A stretch of DNA of 64,000 nucleotides from Abyssogena phaseoliformis symbiont OG214 (GTDB lineage: Bacteria > Pseudomonadota > Gammaproteobacteria > PS1 > Pseudothioglobaceae): NCBI RefSeq assembly GCF_016592595.1, contig NZ_AP012977.1:992001-1056000 (forward strand). The letters run 5' to 3'. The number at the start of each line of letters is the position of its first letter. Within the stretch, counting starts at the first letter, position 1. Position numbers and translations under genes: made by a program. Shown here one piece after another: positions 18,228-28,165 of the stretch. The notes beneath the pieces were generated by a model, which saw nothing but the letters and a program-made list of their open reading frames with translations, was not told the origin of the DNA and made no database searches.

Positions 18228-18566
18228 TTACCCTGGCGGCCAAGTCAGTGCTCGCCCACCTAGACAATGAAGATGAATATGATAAACCGTTTGCCCGCCT
18301 TGTTCATTACAATTCATCACCACACGATAACCCTCATCAGCAAAACCTAACTTTTTAGCAATACAACTTGCTGTTAATGTTAGTTTGCCTAACAACTGCG
18401 CATCATCAGCATTATTTAAAGTTTTAATGTGTGTTTTTGGAATGACTAAAAAATGATGGGGTGCTTGTGGATTCATATCATGAAAAGCAAGAACATCTTC
18501 ATCTTCATAGATTTTATTGACTGGAATGTCACCATTAACCATTTTACAAAATAAACAATCAGTCAT
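18228..18566 (-). CDS. HIT family nucleotide hydrolase/transferase (HinT-like)
   Basis: 112 aa histidine-triad protein, likely a purine nucleoside phosphoramidase. The active-site motif HIHLH is at about residues 96-100 (QTVYHIHLHCLGGRAL). The start MTDCLFCKMVNGDIPVNKIYED is typical. The ATG at 18566 is directly preceded by seven copies of a 7 bp repeat, and no Shine-Dalgarno sequence is visible, so translation efficiency may depend on that tract. Confidence 0.93.
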   Translation of the reverse strand: MTDCLFCKMVNGDIPVNKIYEDEDVLAFHDMNPQAPHHFLVIPKTHIKTLNNADDAQLLGKLTLTASCIAKKLGFADEGYRVVMNCNEQGGQTVYHIHLHCLGGRALTWPPG

Positions 18567-18615
18567 AAAAAGTAAAAAGTAAAAAGTAAAAAGTAAAAAG
18601 TAAAAAGTAAAAAGT
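18567..18615. repeat. Heptanucleotide tandem repeat, (AAAAAGT)7
   Basis: Seven perfect head-to-tail copies of AAAAAGT (49 bp), immediately next to the ATG of the HIT gene. On the gene's strand this is (ACTTTTT)7-ATG. Such tracts are prone to slipped-strand copy-number change. Confidence 0.95.
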
Positions 18616-18756
18616 AAATTTTATTTTATCCTCATTTAACAAATGCACAAACCGCTTTTCTTAGTAATCTATATTAATAAATATTAATATAAATCAGTTG
18701 AATTAAATACTTTAAAATACACATCTTCAAATAATTTTTTTTGATAAGCACAAAAC

Positions 18757-20771
18757 ATATCAAAACAAAATAAGCCGACAAATAAAGAGATTCAAAGCAC
18801 TACTTATTATATGTGCGCTTGTCGTTGCGGCATTAATGTTACGATTGAAAATGGTGAAATTCGCTATATTGAAGGTAACCCAAACCACCCTTTAAACAAA
18901 GGTGTGATTTGTACCAAAGGTTCAGCTGGCATTATGAAACAATACTCGCCTGCGCGCTTAACCAAGCCACTTAAAAGAAAAGAAGGTGCGCAACGTGGCG
19001 AGTCACAATTTGAAGCAATTGAATGGGATGAGGCTTGTGAGATTATGGAAAAACGCCTGTCCCACATTCGCACAACAGACCCTAAAAAGTTTACTTTATT
19101 TACAGGTTGTGACCAAATGCAGGCCTTAACAGGGCTATTTGCCAAACAATATGACACGCCAAATTATGCCACCCACGGTGGATCTTGCTTGGTCAATATG
19201 GCAGCTGGCATGATTTATACCATTAGTGGTTCGTTTGGGAGTTCGGTGGTCCAGATTTGGAAAGGGCAAAACTCTTTATTATGATTAGTACAGCTGAGGA
19301 TCACCACTCCAATCCAATGAAGATTGAGATGAGTAAATTTAAACGCAATGGCGGTAAATTTATTTCAATCAACCCAGTGCGCACTGGCTATTCTGCCATT
19401 TCTGATGAGTGAATACCTATCAAACCAGGCACTAATGTTATGGCAATTAATCATGAATTAATCAAGCAAGGTTTGTTTGATCGTGAATTTTTAATTAAAT
19501 ATACCAAATCGCTGCCGAGTTAGTCAATATAAATGGAGACAGTGATGATTTAATCCTACCTGACACCACCTACTTAGAACGTAGAACGCCACGATGTGAT
19601 GAGCATGCTGAATCGACCCATTTCAGAATTTTACGGCCCGGTAGATTCTCTACGTATGCCAGTATTGCCAGTGACAGGCGATTGCAAACCCTTCCAAGAA
19701 GTGCTGATAGAATTAGCATCAAAGCTTAAATCCCCTGCTTTTGTTGATGAAAATGGCAATCTAAAATACAAATATTACCCCGACTTTATCATCAATTACA
19801 AAACTGCCAAAGACTCAGGCATTGCTTGTCTGGCAGGTTGGTGTGGTAAAAATAGCGAAAAGCAGATGAAAGGCGAGCCTAACAAAAACCAATGAAAAAA
19901 ATACGTTGATAATGATTGTTTCTTCCATTATAAATTGCCAAAATCATACCAATATATGCGTAACTAGAATTTGGGTTATCTTCAATGAGCAAAGCACAAC
20001 GGGCTGACTCGCTACGCCGAACCTGTGCAAATCCATTTGTACTCAGAAGTATTGCAAAAATTAAAATTAGCCGCACAAGGTAAGCGCAAAGGCAAACAAC
20101 CGCCAGAAGAGCTCCGCGCTCGCATACAAGAATTTTTTGACCCCTTGCCTTTATATCACGACCCAATTGAATCTCAACATACAGGCATTAATGAATTTCC
20201 TTTAAATGCAATTACTCAACGCCCTATGGCAATGTATCACTCGTGGGATTCGCAAAATGCTTGGCTTAGACAAATTCACGCATACAATCATTTAATTATG
20301 CACAAAAGTGTTGGTAAAGCAGGTGGTTTTGATGATGGTGATTGGGTGTGGATAGAATCTCCACACGGAAAAGTTCGCTGTATGTGTCGCTTTAGTGAAG
20401 CTGTAGAACCAGGAACTGTATGGACTTGAAATGCAATTGGCAAATCAAAAGGCGCTTGGAATTTATCAAACAAAGCCAATGAATCCAATCAAGGCTTTTT
20501 AATGAACCACCTAATTGCTGAAGATTTACCCTTTAGCAACAAAGAGCAAAATGGCAGACGCATTTCCAACTCTAGCCCAGTAACAGGCCAAACTGGCTGG
20601 TTTGATGTGCGTGTTAAAGTTTATAAATGCACAAAGAATGAAGCAAAAATAACTTTGCCACAATTTAATGCGCAAACACCACTACCTGGTGTGCGTAAAC
20701 GTCAAACTAAATTTATGGCTTATGTGAGCGGCAAGGATTTGTTTTCTAAATTATTAAAAGGGGGTAAATAA
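18757..20771 (+). pseudogene. soeA: Sulfite dehydrogenase (quinone) molybdopterin subunit SoeA, degraded
   Basis: Remnant of a cytoplasmic-facing molybdoprotein of the SoeABC sulfite-oxidising complex. The N-terminal [4Fe-4S] motif YMCACRCGI is followed by IEGNPNHPLNKGVICTKGS, QYSPARLTKPLKRK, AEDHHSNPMK, NPVRTGYSAISDE and C-terminal pieces ending at 20771. The pieces lie in different frames, with breaks near 19260, 19410 (an internal TGA), 19510, 19890 and 20430. The expected start codon position carries ATA at 18757. Identification as SoeA rather than another family member rests on the N-terminal motif and the soeB/soeC order. Confidence 0.85.
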
Positions 20772-21176
20772 TGGCACAACTTGCACTGCAAATTGATTTG
20801 AACGTTTGCGTTGGTTGCTCCGATTGTGTGATCAGTTCAGTTGCAAAGAATGGAATAACTCAGGACAAGCAGGACCGATGGTAGATTTTAATGCCTACGA
20901 TGAAAACCCAACAGGCGCAAAGCTTTTTAGTGATGTGCATGATGACACCTCTGAAGTGTCACAAATCATCCGCGAAGAAGGCAGCTATCAACTGATGCCA
21001 GAATGGGGCGCCAAGCTAGCCAATCATTACTTGCCACGACGCAAATCAAAACTCACCATTCACCATTCACCATTCACCATTCACCAAGATGAGCTTAAAA
21101 GGTCTGATAATCTGCTTAAAAAGAACACTTTAACATGGATAAAAACGCACCATCACTTGATGATGTCACCAGTTAG
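20771..21176 (+). pseudogene. soeB: Sulfite dehydrogenase iron-sulfur subunit SoeB, degraded
   Basis: It begins ATGGCACAAC, overlapping the soeA stop as TAATG. The N terminus has the first cluster half (DLNVCVGCSDC), then shifts frame into CKEWNNSGQAGPMVDFNAYDE. After that a large internal deletion jumps to SDVHDDTSEVSQIIREEGSYQLMPEWG. The tail reads NAPSLDDVTS and a stop in another frame. Most of the ferredoxin-like cysteine motifs are missing, so no functional electron-transfer subunit can be made. A heptamer repeat lies inside it. Confidence 0.85.
21054..21086. repeat. Heptanucleotide tandem repeat, (CACCATT)4 plus CACCA
   Basis: Four perfect copies of CACCATT followed by a partial fifth, inside the soeB pseudogene. 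Its length (28 bp plus 5) is not a multiple of three per unit, so copy changes alter the reading frame. Confidence 0.9.
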
Positions 21177-21188
21177 TAAGGAGATTTT

Positions 21189-22161
21189 ATGCACCCAGCA
21201 TTTTCAGTTATTTTTCTAACAACGCTTATTGGCGCTGGACAAGGGCTATTCATGGCGCTCATGATAGCACAAACCTATTCAGTCGTTGAAATTGTCCCCA
21301 TTAATGATCCAATCCAATTTTATGATCTAGGTGCATTGATTGCACTGGGTTTATTATTATTAGGACTGATAGCGTCAATTTTCCATCTAGGTCATCCTGA
21401 GCGAACTTGGTGTAGTGCTACCATGTGGCGAACTTCTTGGCTTTCTAGAGAAGTTATTGCACTACCAAGTGTAATTAGGGATTATCTTTGTTTATGGACT
21501 CATTCACTATCTAAATATTGACACTGTGCTATTTGACATTAACGACAAAATTTCAATCACACTAAGCCTTGTTGTTGGTAGCGTAGGTGTCTTACTATCG
21601 CTGATTTTATTTGTCTGTACAGGTATGATTTATGCTTGCATTAAATTTATTCAAGAGTGGGCATCACCACTTACTGTGATTAACTATACTTTATTCGGTA
21701 TGGCGTCTGGATTTTCTATTGCTACTGTATTCACCCATTATCAAGCTGAAAATTCGGTTAAATTATTCATAGGCTGGGCAATTATATTTACCCTGCTTAC
21801 TGCTATTATGCGTCTTATCTCATTAATTAGAAGCGCAAAACTCAAACCGAAATCAACCCCACAAAGCGCCATTGGCATACGTCATGATAAAATTAAACAA
21901 GTATCAATGGGTGCCCATGGATGGCTCGTATAATACACAGGAGTATTTTCACGGCAAAAGTGCTATTTTCCTAAAAAGTGTCAAATGGATTTTTATACTG
22001 ATGGTTTTTGTTGTACCATTATCCCTACTAAGCAATGCAATGATTAATATGATGACTATGAATTGCTCTTCATCTGCGCAATCAGCCAATACATCAGTCT
22101 CATCGCTGAACGTTGGTTCTTTTTTTTGCACAAGCAAAACATTTACTACCAAGTTACTTAA
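21189..22161 (+). pseudogene. soeC: Sulfite dehydrogenase membrane anchor SoeC (NrfD/DmsC-like), degraded
   Basis: Remnant of the multi-pass quinone-interacting subunit. It starts with an AAGGAG ribosome-binding site and MHPAFSVIFLTTLIGAGQGLF. HLGHPERTW follows, then a frame change near 21470-21525 and a second block with membrane segments to about 21900. The third block reads YNTQEYFHGKSAIFLKSVKW. The C terminus (SQYISLIAERWFFF then NIYYQVT) is in yet another frame, ending at 22161. At least three frame changes are present. Confidence 0.85.
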
Positions 22162-22233
22162 TTCACTCTGATGAATTCTTTGGTAGTGGAAAATTCTTGA
22201 TAAAGACATTCTCCATCAAGAAAAAGAAACTTG

Positions 22234-23065
22234 TCACAAATTACCAAATTTCCCGTTAGTATTTTTCCACTGGTCTTTCGAAATTATTGACTCAATAATA
22301 TTCCAATGTTCAATAATTTTACCATTTTCAACTCTAAATAAATCGTAAAACGATGTATCTACACCACCAAATTGACCTTCACTAATGCTTAGTACAAAGT
22401 TTCCTTCGCCCAGTATTTTATAGTTTTTTGTGTAGCTCATTTTTATTCCTTGTTTTGCCATCGCCTCTAGAGCTTGACTCAAACCAGATAACCCATCTGC
22501 AACTGCTGTGTTGTGTTGAATATAGTTATCACCATCAAAAAAGCTGGCAATTTTATCCATTTCACCTTTCATCAATATAGTTTCAATGAAACTTTTTACT
22601 AACGTTTTATTTTCTTCGGTTTTATTAATATCAGAAATATTTGTTGTTCCATCAAGCTGAGTGTGTCCACTTGAGTTGGGTTTATCCGTTTTTACATCAA
22701 GATTATCCCAATGCTCAACAATTAAACCATCCTTGAATCGAAACAAATCAAAACCTACCTTAGAAGACCAAAGAAATTATAATTCGTGTGTGTAAACACA
22801 TAATCACCTTCTTCAAAGCTGCGTACAACATTAACTTTAGCATTGCCCCAAAACCTTCCAAGCCATCACTAATAGATAAATTATGCTGAGTATATTCTTT
22901 AGCATTGATATAACTTACAGCTGTTTGATTACCCGTTTCAATACTATTTAGTAAAGCAACGACTTTTTCTTTATTTGATAAATTTATTTGTTCTCCTTTT
23001 TTATTGTTTTGATTGCAAGCTACAAGTAAAAAAAATGTATCCAACAAAATTGTTATATGTTTCAT
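22234..23065 (-). pseudogene. Lipoprotein with two NTF2/SnoaL-like domains, frameshifted
   Basis: It starts MKHITILLDTFFLLVAC, a signal peptide with a lipobox cysteine. The first SnoaL-like domain has EYTQHNLSISDGLEG. After a frameshift near 22850 it continues VNVVRSFEEGDYVFTHTNY, then shifts back near 22760 to VGFDLFRFKDGLIVEHWDN. A second, similar domain ends in YIQHNTAVADGLSGL, FRVENGKIIEHWN and a stop at 22234. SnoaL-like proteins are small ligand-binding or isomerase folds; the substrate is unknown. Two frameshifts make it a pseudogene unless bypassed. Confidence 0.8.
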
Positions 23066-23098
23066 TTTTAATCCATCGCCAAAATCGTAAGCCATTTC

Positions 23099-23864
23099 TT
23101 ATACTTGTTTGTTTTCCAAGATTAAACGCCGTTTAACTTCTATTATTGTATGCGCATCAATTAATTGTTTTACGATTTGATTAATGGCTAGTTTGCATAA
23201 ATTATTTAAGGTTTTATAGGTGACATGTGATTCTGTTGAATAGTAAGAAGTTCCTCTTTCCTTTTTAAATTTTTTCTCTAACAATAAAGTAAAACAATTA
23301 AATTGTTTTACTTAAGATCTACTCAACTTGTTTGTATAAGAATGGGTTTTTTCACGTTCATAACATTATGAATAATGAAGAAAATAAAAACATGATTATC
23401 AGACTATTTTTAGTCTCATGCATCATTTCTTTTTCTATTTCAAAAAATAGTGATATACAACTGTTTGTTTAAAAAACAGACTAGGTGTAAAAATGGGGGT
23501 AATAAGAAATATTCAAATGGTTAAGTGAAAATATCGACACATTCATGTTTATTTGAATCTGCTCAATACATGTTTGAGTGAAAAGAATCACTTTTCCTTG
23601 TATTTTATTATTTAATGAAAATGCCTGAATTTGATTTTTATTGATAAAAATAAAACTACCTTTTGTAAAAGGGTAATGCTTAAAATCAATAAATTGTGCA
23701 CCTTCTCCTTGTTCAATATATAACATCAAGTAAAAATGAACTCGATGTGGTTTGTTTGGATTATGACCCATTGTCGACCTACGACGATAGAGTTCATCAA
23801 GCTCTATAATTTCAATACCTTCCGAATCAAGAGTTAAACATTTAAATTTTATATCTGGATATAT
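23099..23864 (-). pseudogene. AraC-family transcriptional regulator, degraded
   Basis: The N-terminal cupin-like sensing half reads TLDSEGIEIIELDELYRRR then HRVHFYLMLYIEQGEGAQFIDFKHYPF and FIFINKNQIQAF (about 23540-23860). The C-terminal part at 23099-23284 keeps half of the DNA-binding domain (SYYSTESHVTYKTLNNLCK then IIEVKRRLIL). The linker and part of the helix-turn-helix domain between them are scrambled and no start codon remains in frame. It lies directly upstream of the SnoaL-like lipoprotein remnant, which it may once have controlled. Confidence 0.8.
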
Positions 23865-23999
23865 TCATTTTCACATAATTACCAAATCAAAAACATTTCT
23901 AAAAACCTATCGAGTGACTTGTTTTAACTCTATCATTCTTTATTATGGAAAAATGTCTAGTAATTTTACAAAAAACCTCACAAAGTTTTTTTAAATAAT

Positions 24000-25127
24000 T
24001 TAACGATATTGACGCAAATACCACCAACCAAAAACTTGCTTGGCATAATGCATCAAACGACAATTTGGTAACATTAATCCGCCTTTGAGTGTGCGTGATA
24101 TGTACATACCTTTATTATTTGAATCAACAATACACATCAATTCAATCTTAAAAGTATGACTGGCAGGCTTATTATCCAGAACATCTAGCACATTTTTAGC
24201 AGCGGCAGCAGCTTGTAAATCTGCCATATGTGCTTGCTTTGGCATCCACTCTGGCCCTGAGAAAGAACCTGAGTCACCTGCCACAAACACCCTCTCAGCA
24301 CCCTGAACTTGACAAAATTTATCCGCTTTAAGTAAGCCGCCTTCACTACGCTCAAGTTCAGTGTTATCAAACCACTGATTTCCTGTCATGCCTGGCATGA
24401 ACAAAATCAAATCTGTGGCAAACTCACCACCCTCAGTAATGACTTTATCAGCTTCAAAAGCTTTCATCTTATGCCCAAGATGCGTGTTAATATTGCGCTT
24501 TTTCATTTCACTTAATAAACCCTTAACCGCCTTTTCACCTAAGCGAGCACCTGGTTTTTTTGCAGGGGTAAAAAAAGTCAGATTAAATTTATCACGCCGA
24601 CCTTCTTGTCGTAATTGTGTATCCAAGCCAAACAAAAACTCAAACATTGGACCACCACGCATGGCACTTGGCTCCTTGGGATTACTCGCAAAACCAATGG
24701 CAATATTACCACTATCCATAGCCTGAATTCTATCACGTATCTGCTCAACAGCACTCAATCCCTCACACGGGGTAATAGCGTGCTCAATGCCAGGCGGTTT
24801 CTTAAGAAACCGCCCACCTGAGGCAATAATAAGCACATCATTTTCATACTCACCTGCTGAAGTGATTACAGTTCTAGCATGATTTTCCAAGCCTGTAACT
24901 TCACTAGCGATATGGCGAACATTCATACGCTTAAAAAAACGCTCAAGTGGAATAACAATGTCTTTTTTACTGGCTATACCTGATGGCACCCAAATTAAAC
25001 TTGGCATATAAACCAGCTCTGCCTTCGGTGATATTAAAGTGATTTGTGCGTGCTTGTCGCTTTTTATAAGGGTTCTAACAGCTGTTAATCCTGCAAAGCC
25101 CGACCCAATAATGGTAATTTTTTTCAT
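24000..25127 (-). CDS. FAD-dependent oxidoreductase, sulfide:quinone reductase-like
   Basis: 375 aa flavoprotein. The FAD-binding motif GSGFAGLTA starts at residue 8, a second conserved segment is FATDLILFMPGMTG (about 236-249), and the third is VFVAGDSGS (280-288). The fold and spacing match sulfide:quinone oxidoreductases, which pass sulfide electrons to quinone. Cysteines are at 121, 272, 332 and 356. C121 and C332 fall about where SQR has conserved cysteines, but the middle redox cysteine of canonical SQR appears to be absent (RGGPMFEF instead of CFGP). The start at 25127 lies 2 bp after the preceding gene; a longer start at 25208 would overlap that gene. Confidence 0.75.
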   Translation of the reverse strand: MKKITIIGSGFAGLTAVRTLIKSDKHAQITLISPKAELVYMPSLIWVPSGIASKKDIVIPLERFFKRMNVRHIASEVTGLENHARTVITSAGEYENDVLIIASGGRFLKKPPGIEHAITPCEGLSAVEQIRDRIQAMDSGNIAIGFASNPKEPSAMRGGPMFEFLFGLDTQLRQEGRRDKFNLTFFTPAKKPGARLGEKAVKGLLSEMKKRNINTHLGHKMKAFEADKVITEGGEFATDLILFMPGMTGNQWFDNTELERSEGGLLKADKFCQVQGAERVFVAGDSGSFSGPEWMPKQAHMADLQAAAAAKNVLDVLDNKPASHTFKIELMCIVDSNNKGMYISRTLKGGLMLPNCRLMHYAKQVFGWWYLRQYR

Positions 25128-25129
25128 TC

Positions 25130-25432
25130 TTAAAAAATCTCCAATATTTGAGTTGTGCTTGTTTCCATGTTGGCAATATTGCAAAAATACGCCATCATTT
25201 GTGGCCACTGCTCTCTGGCTTCAAGTAGTTTGGTAAAGTTTACGTGATGCACTTTACTTTGCCATTTAACCAAACAATACACGCGTCCATCTTTATCAAT
25301 CCCAGAATCACGTGAAATAAACCCATCAGCTTTAGCAATATCCTCATCAATTTCTTTTGATAAAGTCTTCCAATCATTCATTAAATCTTGATTGGTTAAC
25401 TCAAATGACATAATTACAAAATATTCACTCAT
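25130..25432 (-). CDS. Small hypothetical protein, antibiotic-monooxygenase-like (dimeric alpha/beta barrel)
   Basis: 100 aa, starting MSEYFVIMSFELTNQDLM and containing DGFISRDSGIDKDGRVYCLVKWQS. The alternating strand/helix pattern and the VYCLVKWQS strand recall ABM-type ferredoxin-like domains, but this is a fold impression only. It lies 2 bp upstream of the SQR-like flavoprotein and 9 bp after the gene ending at 25442, so the three form an operon. A role as a partner of the flavoprotein is conjecture. Confidence 0.65.
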   Translation of the reverse strand: MSEYFVIMSFELTNQDLMNDWKTLSKEIDEDIAKADGFISRDSGIDKDGRVYCLVKWQSKVHHVNFTKLLEAREQWPQMMAYFCNIANMETSTTQILEIF

Positions 25433-27817: not shown

Positions 27818-28165
27818 GATTCTCCTGGACAATATTGAACCTCTTGCTTGTGACATAGATTATAAATTTTACAACCCCCACAAATACCAAACACTGCTCC
27901 AAAGAGTAATAACCCCAAACACGAAGCACAAACACGAACACGAATATTAATCGTTCTGCAAACATTATTAAGCACCGCCAGATAAAACATAATGGCTACC
28001 AAAACAAAACCCAAAACCCAAAACCCATCTTTTTTGTAGTGCACCAACATATTCTGGTGTTTGGTTATTAACCATCCAACGACCCATAACTATAGATGGA
28101 ACGTATTTAGGGTTTAAAAAAATTCGAATAAACAAATCAAACAAAAATACAATGCCTGCTGCCAC
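27778..28165 (-). pseudogene. DUF4395-like membrane protein, frameshifted
   Basis: The first frame (GTG at 28165) reads IRIFLNPKYVPSIVMGRWMV then NNQTPEYVGALQKRW. The second, from about 28030, reads GFVLVAIMFYLAVLNN and then FGICGGCKIYNLCHKQE with CPGESC. Joined, they follow the DUF4395 pattern, including its GIC-GCK-Y motif. The switch falls near an A-rich run (ACAAAAAAG) at about 28040. Members are integral membrane proteins of unknown role, often near thiol or sulfur genes. Confidence 0.75.

What the first reader, a model, noticed from the sequence alone, without database searches (positions are those of the whole stretch)
18757..22161. soeABC sulfite dehydrogenase is a three-gene pseudogene cluster
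All three subunits can be followed in order, but soeA has about five breaks and an ATA in place of the start. soeB has lost most of its cysteine clusters, and soeC has at least three frame changes. Known: SoeABC is the cytoplasmic sulfite oxidation route of purple sulfur bacteria, and SUP05-type organisms use sulfur for energy. Inference: sulfite must now go through another route (APS reductase/Sat), so this lineage is shedding a redundant branch. The erosion looks recent, since each subunit is still readable.
Basis: partly seen in the sequence, partly recalled or inferred. Interest (0 to 1): 0.7.

Follow-up and report, generated by a model that had tools for sequence, protein, structure and literature searches.

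The report
Decaying sulfite-oxidising genes in clam symbionts
Three neighbouring genes for a membrane enzyme that probably oxidised sulfite are truly broken in this close relative of deep-sea clam symbionts, and its relatives are losing the same genes, largely through different mutations, while nearly all keep another route for the same reaction.

Summary
Frameshift-aware alignment to an intact soeABC shows that soeA carries 3 frameshifts, 5 in-frame stops and a ~299-codon deletion; its start is ATA where three relatives have ATG. soeB lost 12 of 16 cluster cysteines; soeC has 3 frameshifts. Assembly error cannot explain the substitutions and large deletions. The genome (1.54 Mb, one contig) groups with Ca. 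Ruthia/Ruthturnera clam symbionts. It has no second soe, keeps intact aprA, aprB and sat, and its only sulfite-oxidase-fold gene is msrP.

Beyond the finding: 0 of 12 genus genomes has an intact soeA. Ten, this one included, hold relics between a HIT gene and an sqr-like gene (split in one); two hold none there. Ten readable loci of other relatives have HIT next to sqr without soe. This genome and G007 share no lesion over 878 codons, and dN/dS between their relics is 0.17 (0.13-0.22), so inactivation was late and happened more than once: two events are firm, more are probable.

A new example of a known kind: recA and narG decay were already described in these symbionts. Redundancy with AprBA-Sat is the likely permissive cause, inferred.

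The parts
18757..20771 (+). soeA relic (molybdopterin subunit): start ATG->ATA, first Fe-S Cys->Tyr, 3 frameshifts, 5 in-frame stops, ~299-codon deletion at 19546
   Evidence: Pfam PF04879, PF00384, PF01568 on fragments
20771..21173 (+). soeB relic (4Fe-4S subunit): frameshift at 20837, possibly another near 21130, 114-codon deletion, 12 of 16 cluster Cys gone, heptamer array inside
21189..22152 (+). soeC relic (DmsC/NrfD-type membrane anchor): 3 frameshifts
18228..18566 (-). HIT-family gene, open frame; left neighbour of the soe relic in the genus genomes that have one
   Evidence: family name recalled
24000..25208 (-). open frame of a sulfide:quinone-oxidoreductase-like flavoprotein; right neighbour of the soe relic in relatives
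   Evidence: (Pyr_redox_2); 'sqr-like' is my label
22153..23999 (.). ~1.8 kb between soeC and the sqr-like gene with SnoaL-like and AraC-binding fragments; in G007, G002 and G011 soeC nearly abuts sqr
21053..21086 (.). TCACCAT x4.9 heptamer array inside the soeB relic
18566..18618 (.). TAAAAAG x7.6 heptamer array between the HIT gene and soeA

Best explanation
A three-gene cluster for a SoeABC-type sulfite:quinone oxidoreductase sits between a HIT gene and an sqr-like gene in the genus of the vesicomyid clam symbionts. It was still under selection after this genome and G007 parted, and was then inactivated late and separately in at least two lineages, probably more. Shown: the lesions; that G000 and G007 share none; late timing from dN/dS; intact aprBA and sat; no second soe. 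Inferred: that the enzyme oxidised sulfite in the cytoplasm, that AprBA-Sat now carries sulfite oxidation, and that redundancy plus drift in a host-bound bacterium is why loss was tolerated.
For: Lesion map. ATG at the start in 3 of the 4 relatives shown. G000 and G007 share no lesion over 878 comparable codons (lesions, codon count). dN/dS of soe G000-G007 0.17 (bootstrap 0.13-0.22; 866 codons, indel codons dropped and stops skipped), against 0.088 gcvP, 0.068 sqr, 0.036 rpoB. 0 of 12 genus genomes has an intact soeA; relics in 10 of 12 counting this one. aprA, sat and aprB over cut-off in 11 of 12 each. moaA over cut-off in 12 of 12, so cofactor loss did not force it. DNA tree of four genes: ((G010,G007),G000) and (G002,G011), each fork 100/100.
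Against: W862 is TGA in both G000 and G011, so that stop could be shared; G007, G010, G002, G003 lack the stretch. G007 and G010 have a 1-nt insertion at the same codon 84, with different bases, so they may share one event. The gcvP tree instead groups G000 with G002/G011 (84/90). G000 branch estimates disagree (0.14 and 0.45 on 164 and 216 codons). The small HIT gene reaches dN/dS 0.166 for the same pair. Intact SoeA pairs were saturated, so soe has no functional baseline of its own. No named SoeA to compare; no reads or expression data.
Confidence: 0.87

Rival explanations
1. Sequencing or assembly errors create the frame changes; the cluster is intact in life.
For: Single-base indels are typical long-read errors (general knowledge); one clam symbiont genome, that of C. 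fausta, was assembled from Nanopore reads polished with Illumina (PMC7473567, passages). G007 gcvP shows 3 frame events and G011 gcvP 1, so some relatives may hold errors.
Against: Five nonsense substitutions, a start-codon substitution and deletions of ~299 and 114 codons are not indel errors. rpoB and gcvP have 0 events here. Separate genomes carry relics too.
Confidence: 0.03
2. One ancestral inactivation in the genus, followed by erosion in every lineage.
For: Ten of 12 genomes hold relics at the same site; W862 TGA in G000 and G011; same insertion site at codon 84 in G007 and G010. G002-G011 dN/dS 1.31 (0.49-5.6; 103 codons) fits loss before their split.
Against: No lesion shared by G000 and G007 in 878 codons, and their dN/dS of 0.17 is far from the ~1 expected of a long-dead gene. 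Relatives keep TGG at the private stops of G000 wherever comparable, and ATG at the start.
Confidence: 0.08
3. TGA (and TAG) is read as Trp, so the protein is still made.
For: All 5 in-frame stops of soeA lie at Trp codons.
Against: One is TAG. Of 31 window genes that I listed, 6 end in TGA and 6 in TAG, and they hold 58 TGG codons. Frameshifts and deletions remain. Stops in the other relics also fall at Gln, Ser and Leu positions.
Confidence: 0.01
4. The cluster encodes another molybdoenzyme of the same superfamily (thiosulfate, polysulfide or DMSO type), not SoeABC.
For: NCBIfam gave no Soe model; best hit of the intact SoeA is PhsA (235 bits, cut-off 694). No named SoeA could be compared; plasmid hits are annotated only as molybdopterin oxidoreductase or not at all.
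Against: Below the cut-off of each of the 25 (of 26) families shown. Order A-B-C, no Tat-type leader by eye. In the class the protein falls into two groups about 55% identical, like the two SoeA groups of Thioalkalivibrio (PMC6382920, passages).
Confidence: 0.07

Closest known systems
SoeABC sulfite:quinone oxidoreductase (Allochromatium vinosum type)
   Same: Subunit order, domain make-up (PF04879/PF00384/PF01568; Fer4; DmsC) and no Tat leader seen
   Different: Non-functional relic here; direct comparison with the named enzyme was not possible
Independent recA decay in Calyptogena clam symbionts (PMC3202245, passages)
   Same: Same symbiont group; lesions not shared between lineages
   Different: An energy-metabolism complex rather than DNA repair
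narG pseudogene of Ca. Ruthia magnifica (PMC2642828, passages)
   Same: Relic of a respiratory molybdoenzyme left in its ancestral position
   Different: Nitrate reductase; the passages read do not mention soe

Membership tests
Pseudogene of SoeABC | Three adjacent genes in order soeA-soeB-soeC on one strand | tested here: met
Pseudogene of SoeABC | SoeA: molybdopterin oxidoreductase with Fe4S4 domain | tested here: met
   (window fragments and intact L102 reference)
Pseudogene of SoeABC | SoeA cytoplasmic, no Tat leader | tested here: met
   Start regions of relics and reference read by eye; no leader predictor was run
Pseudogene of SoeABC | SoeB with four [4Fe-4S] clusters (16 Cys) | tested here: met
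   16 Cys in the reference; 12 of 12 kept in the surviving part of G007; 4 of 16 kept here because of the deletion
Pseudogene of SoeABC | SoeC membrane anchor of DmsC/NrfD type | tested here: met
   DmsC over cut-off on both soeC fragments; NrfD below its cut-off
Pseudogene of SoeABC | Groups with biochemically named SoeA | not testable with these tools
   No record named SoeA among the hits
Pseudogene of SoeABC | Open frames destroyed by several kinds of lesion | tested here: met
Pseudogene of SoeABC | Sulfite oxidation by the intact ancestor | not testable with these tools
   needs biochemistry

The most novel reading that the evidence does not exclude
soeABC entered the stem of the clam symbionts once, between HIT and sqr, worked for much of their history, and was then discarded in parallel by every sampled lineage that had it. 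Life inside the clam may actively disfavour direct sulfite oxidation, for instance because AprBA-Sat also yields ATP, rather than merely tolerating its loss.
Probability: 0.2. Interest if true: 0.5.

Novelty: new member of a known kind. Interest (0 to 1): 0.35.

Why it matters
It gives a multi-stage decay series of one respiratory complex within a single symbiont genus, from long relics to traces of about 50 bases, and shows which of two sulfite routes survives. In A. vinosum aprBA was reported as not essential for sulfite oxidation (PMC6382920, passages); here 11 of 12 genomes keep AprBA and Sat and none has an intact soeA.

Tried and rejected
Recoding of TGA as Trp, considered because all five soeA stops lie at Trp codons: rejected. 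Cofactor loss as the driver: moaA is over cut-off in 12 of 12. Another sulfite dehydrogenase: the PF00174 protein is MsrP. A donor for soe: the two relics in the tree share a long stem among 32 distinct type-A SoeA rows, with no close relative, so acquisition and differential loss both stay open. Heptamer arrays as a genome-wide feature: 3 in the window but 1 in 180 kb of own-genome samples and 1 in 256 kb of genus loci, so dropped. Unusual conservation of the short soeA fragments in the 1.0 Mb genomes: judged by eye on the alignment of the four HIT-sqr gaps, other stretches are as conserved, so no function is claimed. Dropped rows: G001, G005, G006, G009 were left out of the lesion table and dN/dS because too little remains; relics of G010 and G002 were left out of the SoeA tree; codons touched by indels were dropped and stop codons skipped in dN/dS. 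L178 (a 45-base match to soeB in G008, away from the HIT-sqr site) was fetched but its genes were not examined.

Full report
What the window is. The window is positions 992001-1056000 of a 1,542,177-base single-contig genome. Its GcvP is 91-95% identical to that of 4 named Ca. Ruthia/Ruthturnera genomes and 77-82% to that of 13 other relatives, mostly Thioglobus-type. The genus as held has 12 genomes. G001 (1,022,154 bases) and G003 (1,160,782) have the sizes of Ca. Vesicomyosocius okutanii and Ca. Ruthia magnifica given in the abstract of PMC3202245 (listing). That these are clam symbionts comes from those names and papers; the window's own species and host were not identified.

The lesions. 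An in-house frameshift-aware protein-DNA aligner was run against the intact SoeABC of G037. soeA: 651 codons aligned, 67.1% identical, three frameshifts, five in-frame stops, about 299 codons deleted. soeB: 125 codons aligned, 114 deleted, one clear and one possible frameshift. soeC: 320 codons aligned, 52.8% identical, three frameshifts. The start is ATA where G007, G002 and G003 have ATG; G007 has an extra A just after its ATG, a lesion of its own seen by eye in that output. Four of 16 SoeB cluster cysteines remain and the first Fe-S cysteine of SoeA is tyrosine. gcvP and rpoB of this genome give no frame events. All five soeA stops replace Trp; one is TAG, and 6 of 31 listed window genes end in TGA, so recoding is excluded.

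Relatives. With the same aligner, G007 holds soeA in one place and soeB/soeC in another, about 0.4 Mb apart. G010 holds only the 5' part of soeA; G002, G011 and G003 hold other pieces. G001, G005, G006 and G009 hold in the HIT-sqr gap two fragments of 52-65 bases that match the window, and a weaker third of 43-46 bases that matches G007. In the gaps of G004 and G008 blastn finds no soe; protein scores stay within 60 shuffles except SoeB in G004, 37 against a shuffle maximum of 36, which I take as chance. G004 does share 63 bases with the stretch upstream of HIT, outside the soe genes. G008 has one 45-base match elsewhere, to soeB, not examined. In 10 of the 13 loci L026-L038 both HIT and sqr could be read and no soe was found; in the other 3 the junction was not in the locus or not found. 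In the family search of 83 genomes (49 of them at least 90% complete), 71 are outside the genus; among those the only full-length SoeA is G065 at 54% identity, with fragments in G080 at 60-64%; other matches are to distant molybdoenzymes. In the class, 101 of 369 genomes have SoeA at E of 1e-300 or better.

Timing and number of losses. Lesions were tabulated for six genomes. G000 and G007 share none. G000 and G011 share TGA at W862. G007 and G010 share an insertion site at codon 84 with different bases. Pairwise dN/dS for soe: G000-G007 0.17 (0.13-0.22), G000-G010 0.20, G007-G010 0.41, G000-G002 0.27, G007-G002 0.14, G000-G011 0.28, G000-G003 0.26, G007-G003 0.22, G002-G011 1.31 (0.49-5.6). 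For G000-G007, rpoB gives 0.036, sqr 0.068, gcvP 0.088, HIT 0.166. So soe evolved under constraint for most of the time since G000 and G007 split. Limits: HIT shows that a working small gene can reach a similar value, and intact SoeA pairs were saturated and gave no baseline. Branch counts are noisier: G000 0.14 or 0.45 by reference pair, G007 0.25 or 0.43, G010 0.68, G011 0.51, G002 0.27, G003 1.08; among working genes most branches lie at 0.03-0.14 but sqr in G010 is 0.32. A fatal W862 stop in a common ancestor would not fit the low values; past W862 the relics are not more eroded. Trees differ: the four-gene DNA tree puts G000 with G007/G010 (100/100) and the concatenated protein tree agrees weakly (85), but gcvP alone puts G000 with G002/G011 (84/90). 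Two separate inactivations are therefore firm (G000; G007/G010). G002/G011 and G003 are probably further ones. For the four 1.0 Mb genomes and for G004 and G008 no count can be made.

Why loss is tolerated. aprA, aprB and sat are over cut-off in 11 of 12 genus genomes each; the exception, G008, is a 120-contig draft and the three genes lie close together elsewhere, so one missing contig could hide them. In Ca. V. marissinica aprAB and sat are reported as highly expressed (PMC7826175, passages). moaA is over cut-off in 12 of 12. The PF00174 gene here is msrP beside msrQ. This makes AprBA-Sat the likely remaining route; flux was not measured.

Known or new. recA decay with lesions not shared between lineages is described for these symbionts (PMC3202245, passages), and a narG pseudogene for R. 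magnifica (PMC2642828, passages). I found no report of soe relics in these symbionts in the listings, nor in the passages read; the library holds open-licence PMC papers only. The finding is a new member of a known kind, made more informative by the graded series of relics.

Noticed in passing
window 18566-18618, 21053-21086, 28005-28027: Three perfect heptamer tandem arrays (x7.6, x4.9, x3.3), none of period 5, 6 or 8-12 at the same threshold in the window; not a clear genome-wide pattern.
   Followed up: partly
L025:1990-2151; L217:15404-15562; L215:13956-14068: A 162-bp near-palindromic, MITE-like element (ends GAGACCTTTGCATAAATA) with tens of matches in G004 and G008, two places in the own-genome samples, and a weaker match in L033 of another genus.
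   Followed up: partly
G008 (CSMAG_640): No soeA relative, no aprA or sat and no aprB over the cut-off in a draft rated 100% complete; could be a gap or a different sulfite route.
   Followed up: no
L219:5542-8080 (G000:C1 about 450.5-453.1 kb): napA split into two overlapping frames of 204 and 694 aa; the second matches NapA over the curated cut-off.
   Followed up: partly
G000:C1:849588-851640: Degraded large molybdopterin oxidoreductase with many stops; frames of 1245-1275 aa are open in G004, G008 and the four 1.0 Mb genomes; probably narG (name inferred).
   Followed up: no
window 22153-23999: About 1.8 kb between soeC and the sqr-like gene, with SnoaL-like and AraC-binding fragments; its SnoaL-like gene was found in no other genus locus searched.
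   Followed up: partly
L171-L174, upstream of HIT: In the four 1.0 Mb genomes a soeA relic begins about 10-14 bases upstream of the HIT start, so HIT's upstream region is now former soeA.
   Followed up: partly
L130 and L169, gcvP: gcvP has 3 frame events in G007 and 1 in G011; sequencing error or early decay.
   Followed up: no
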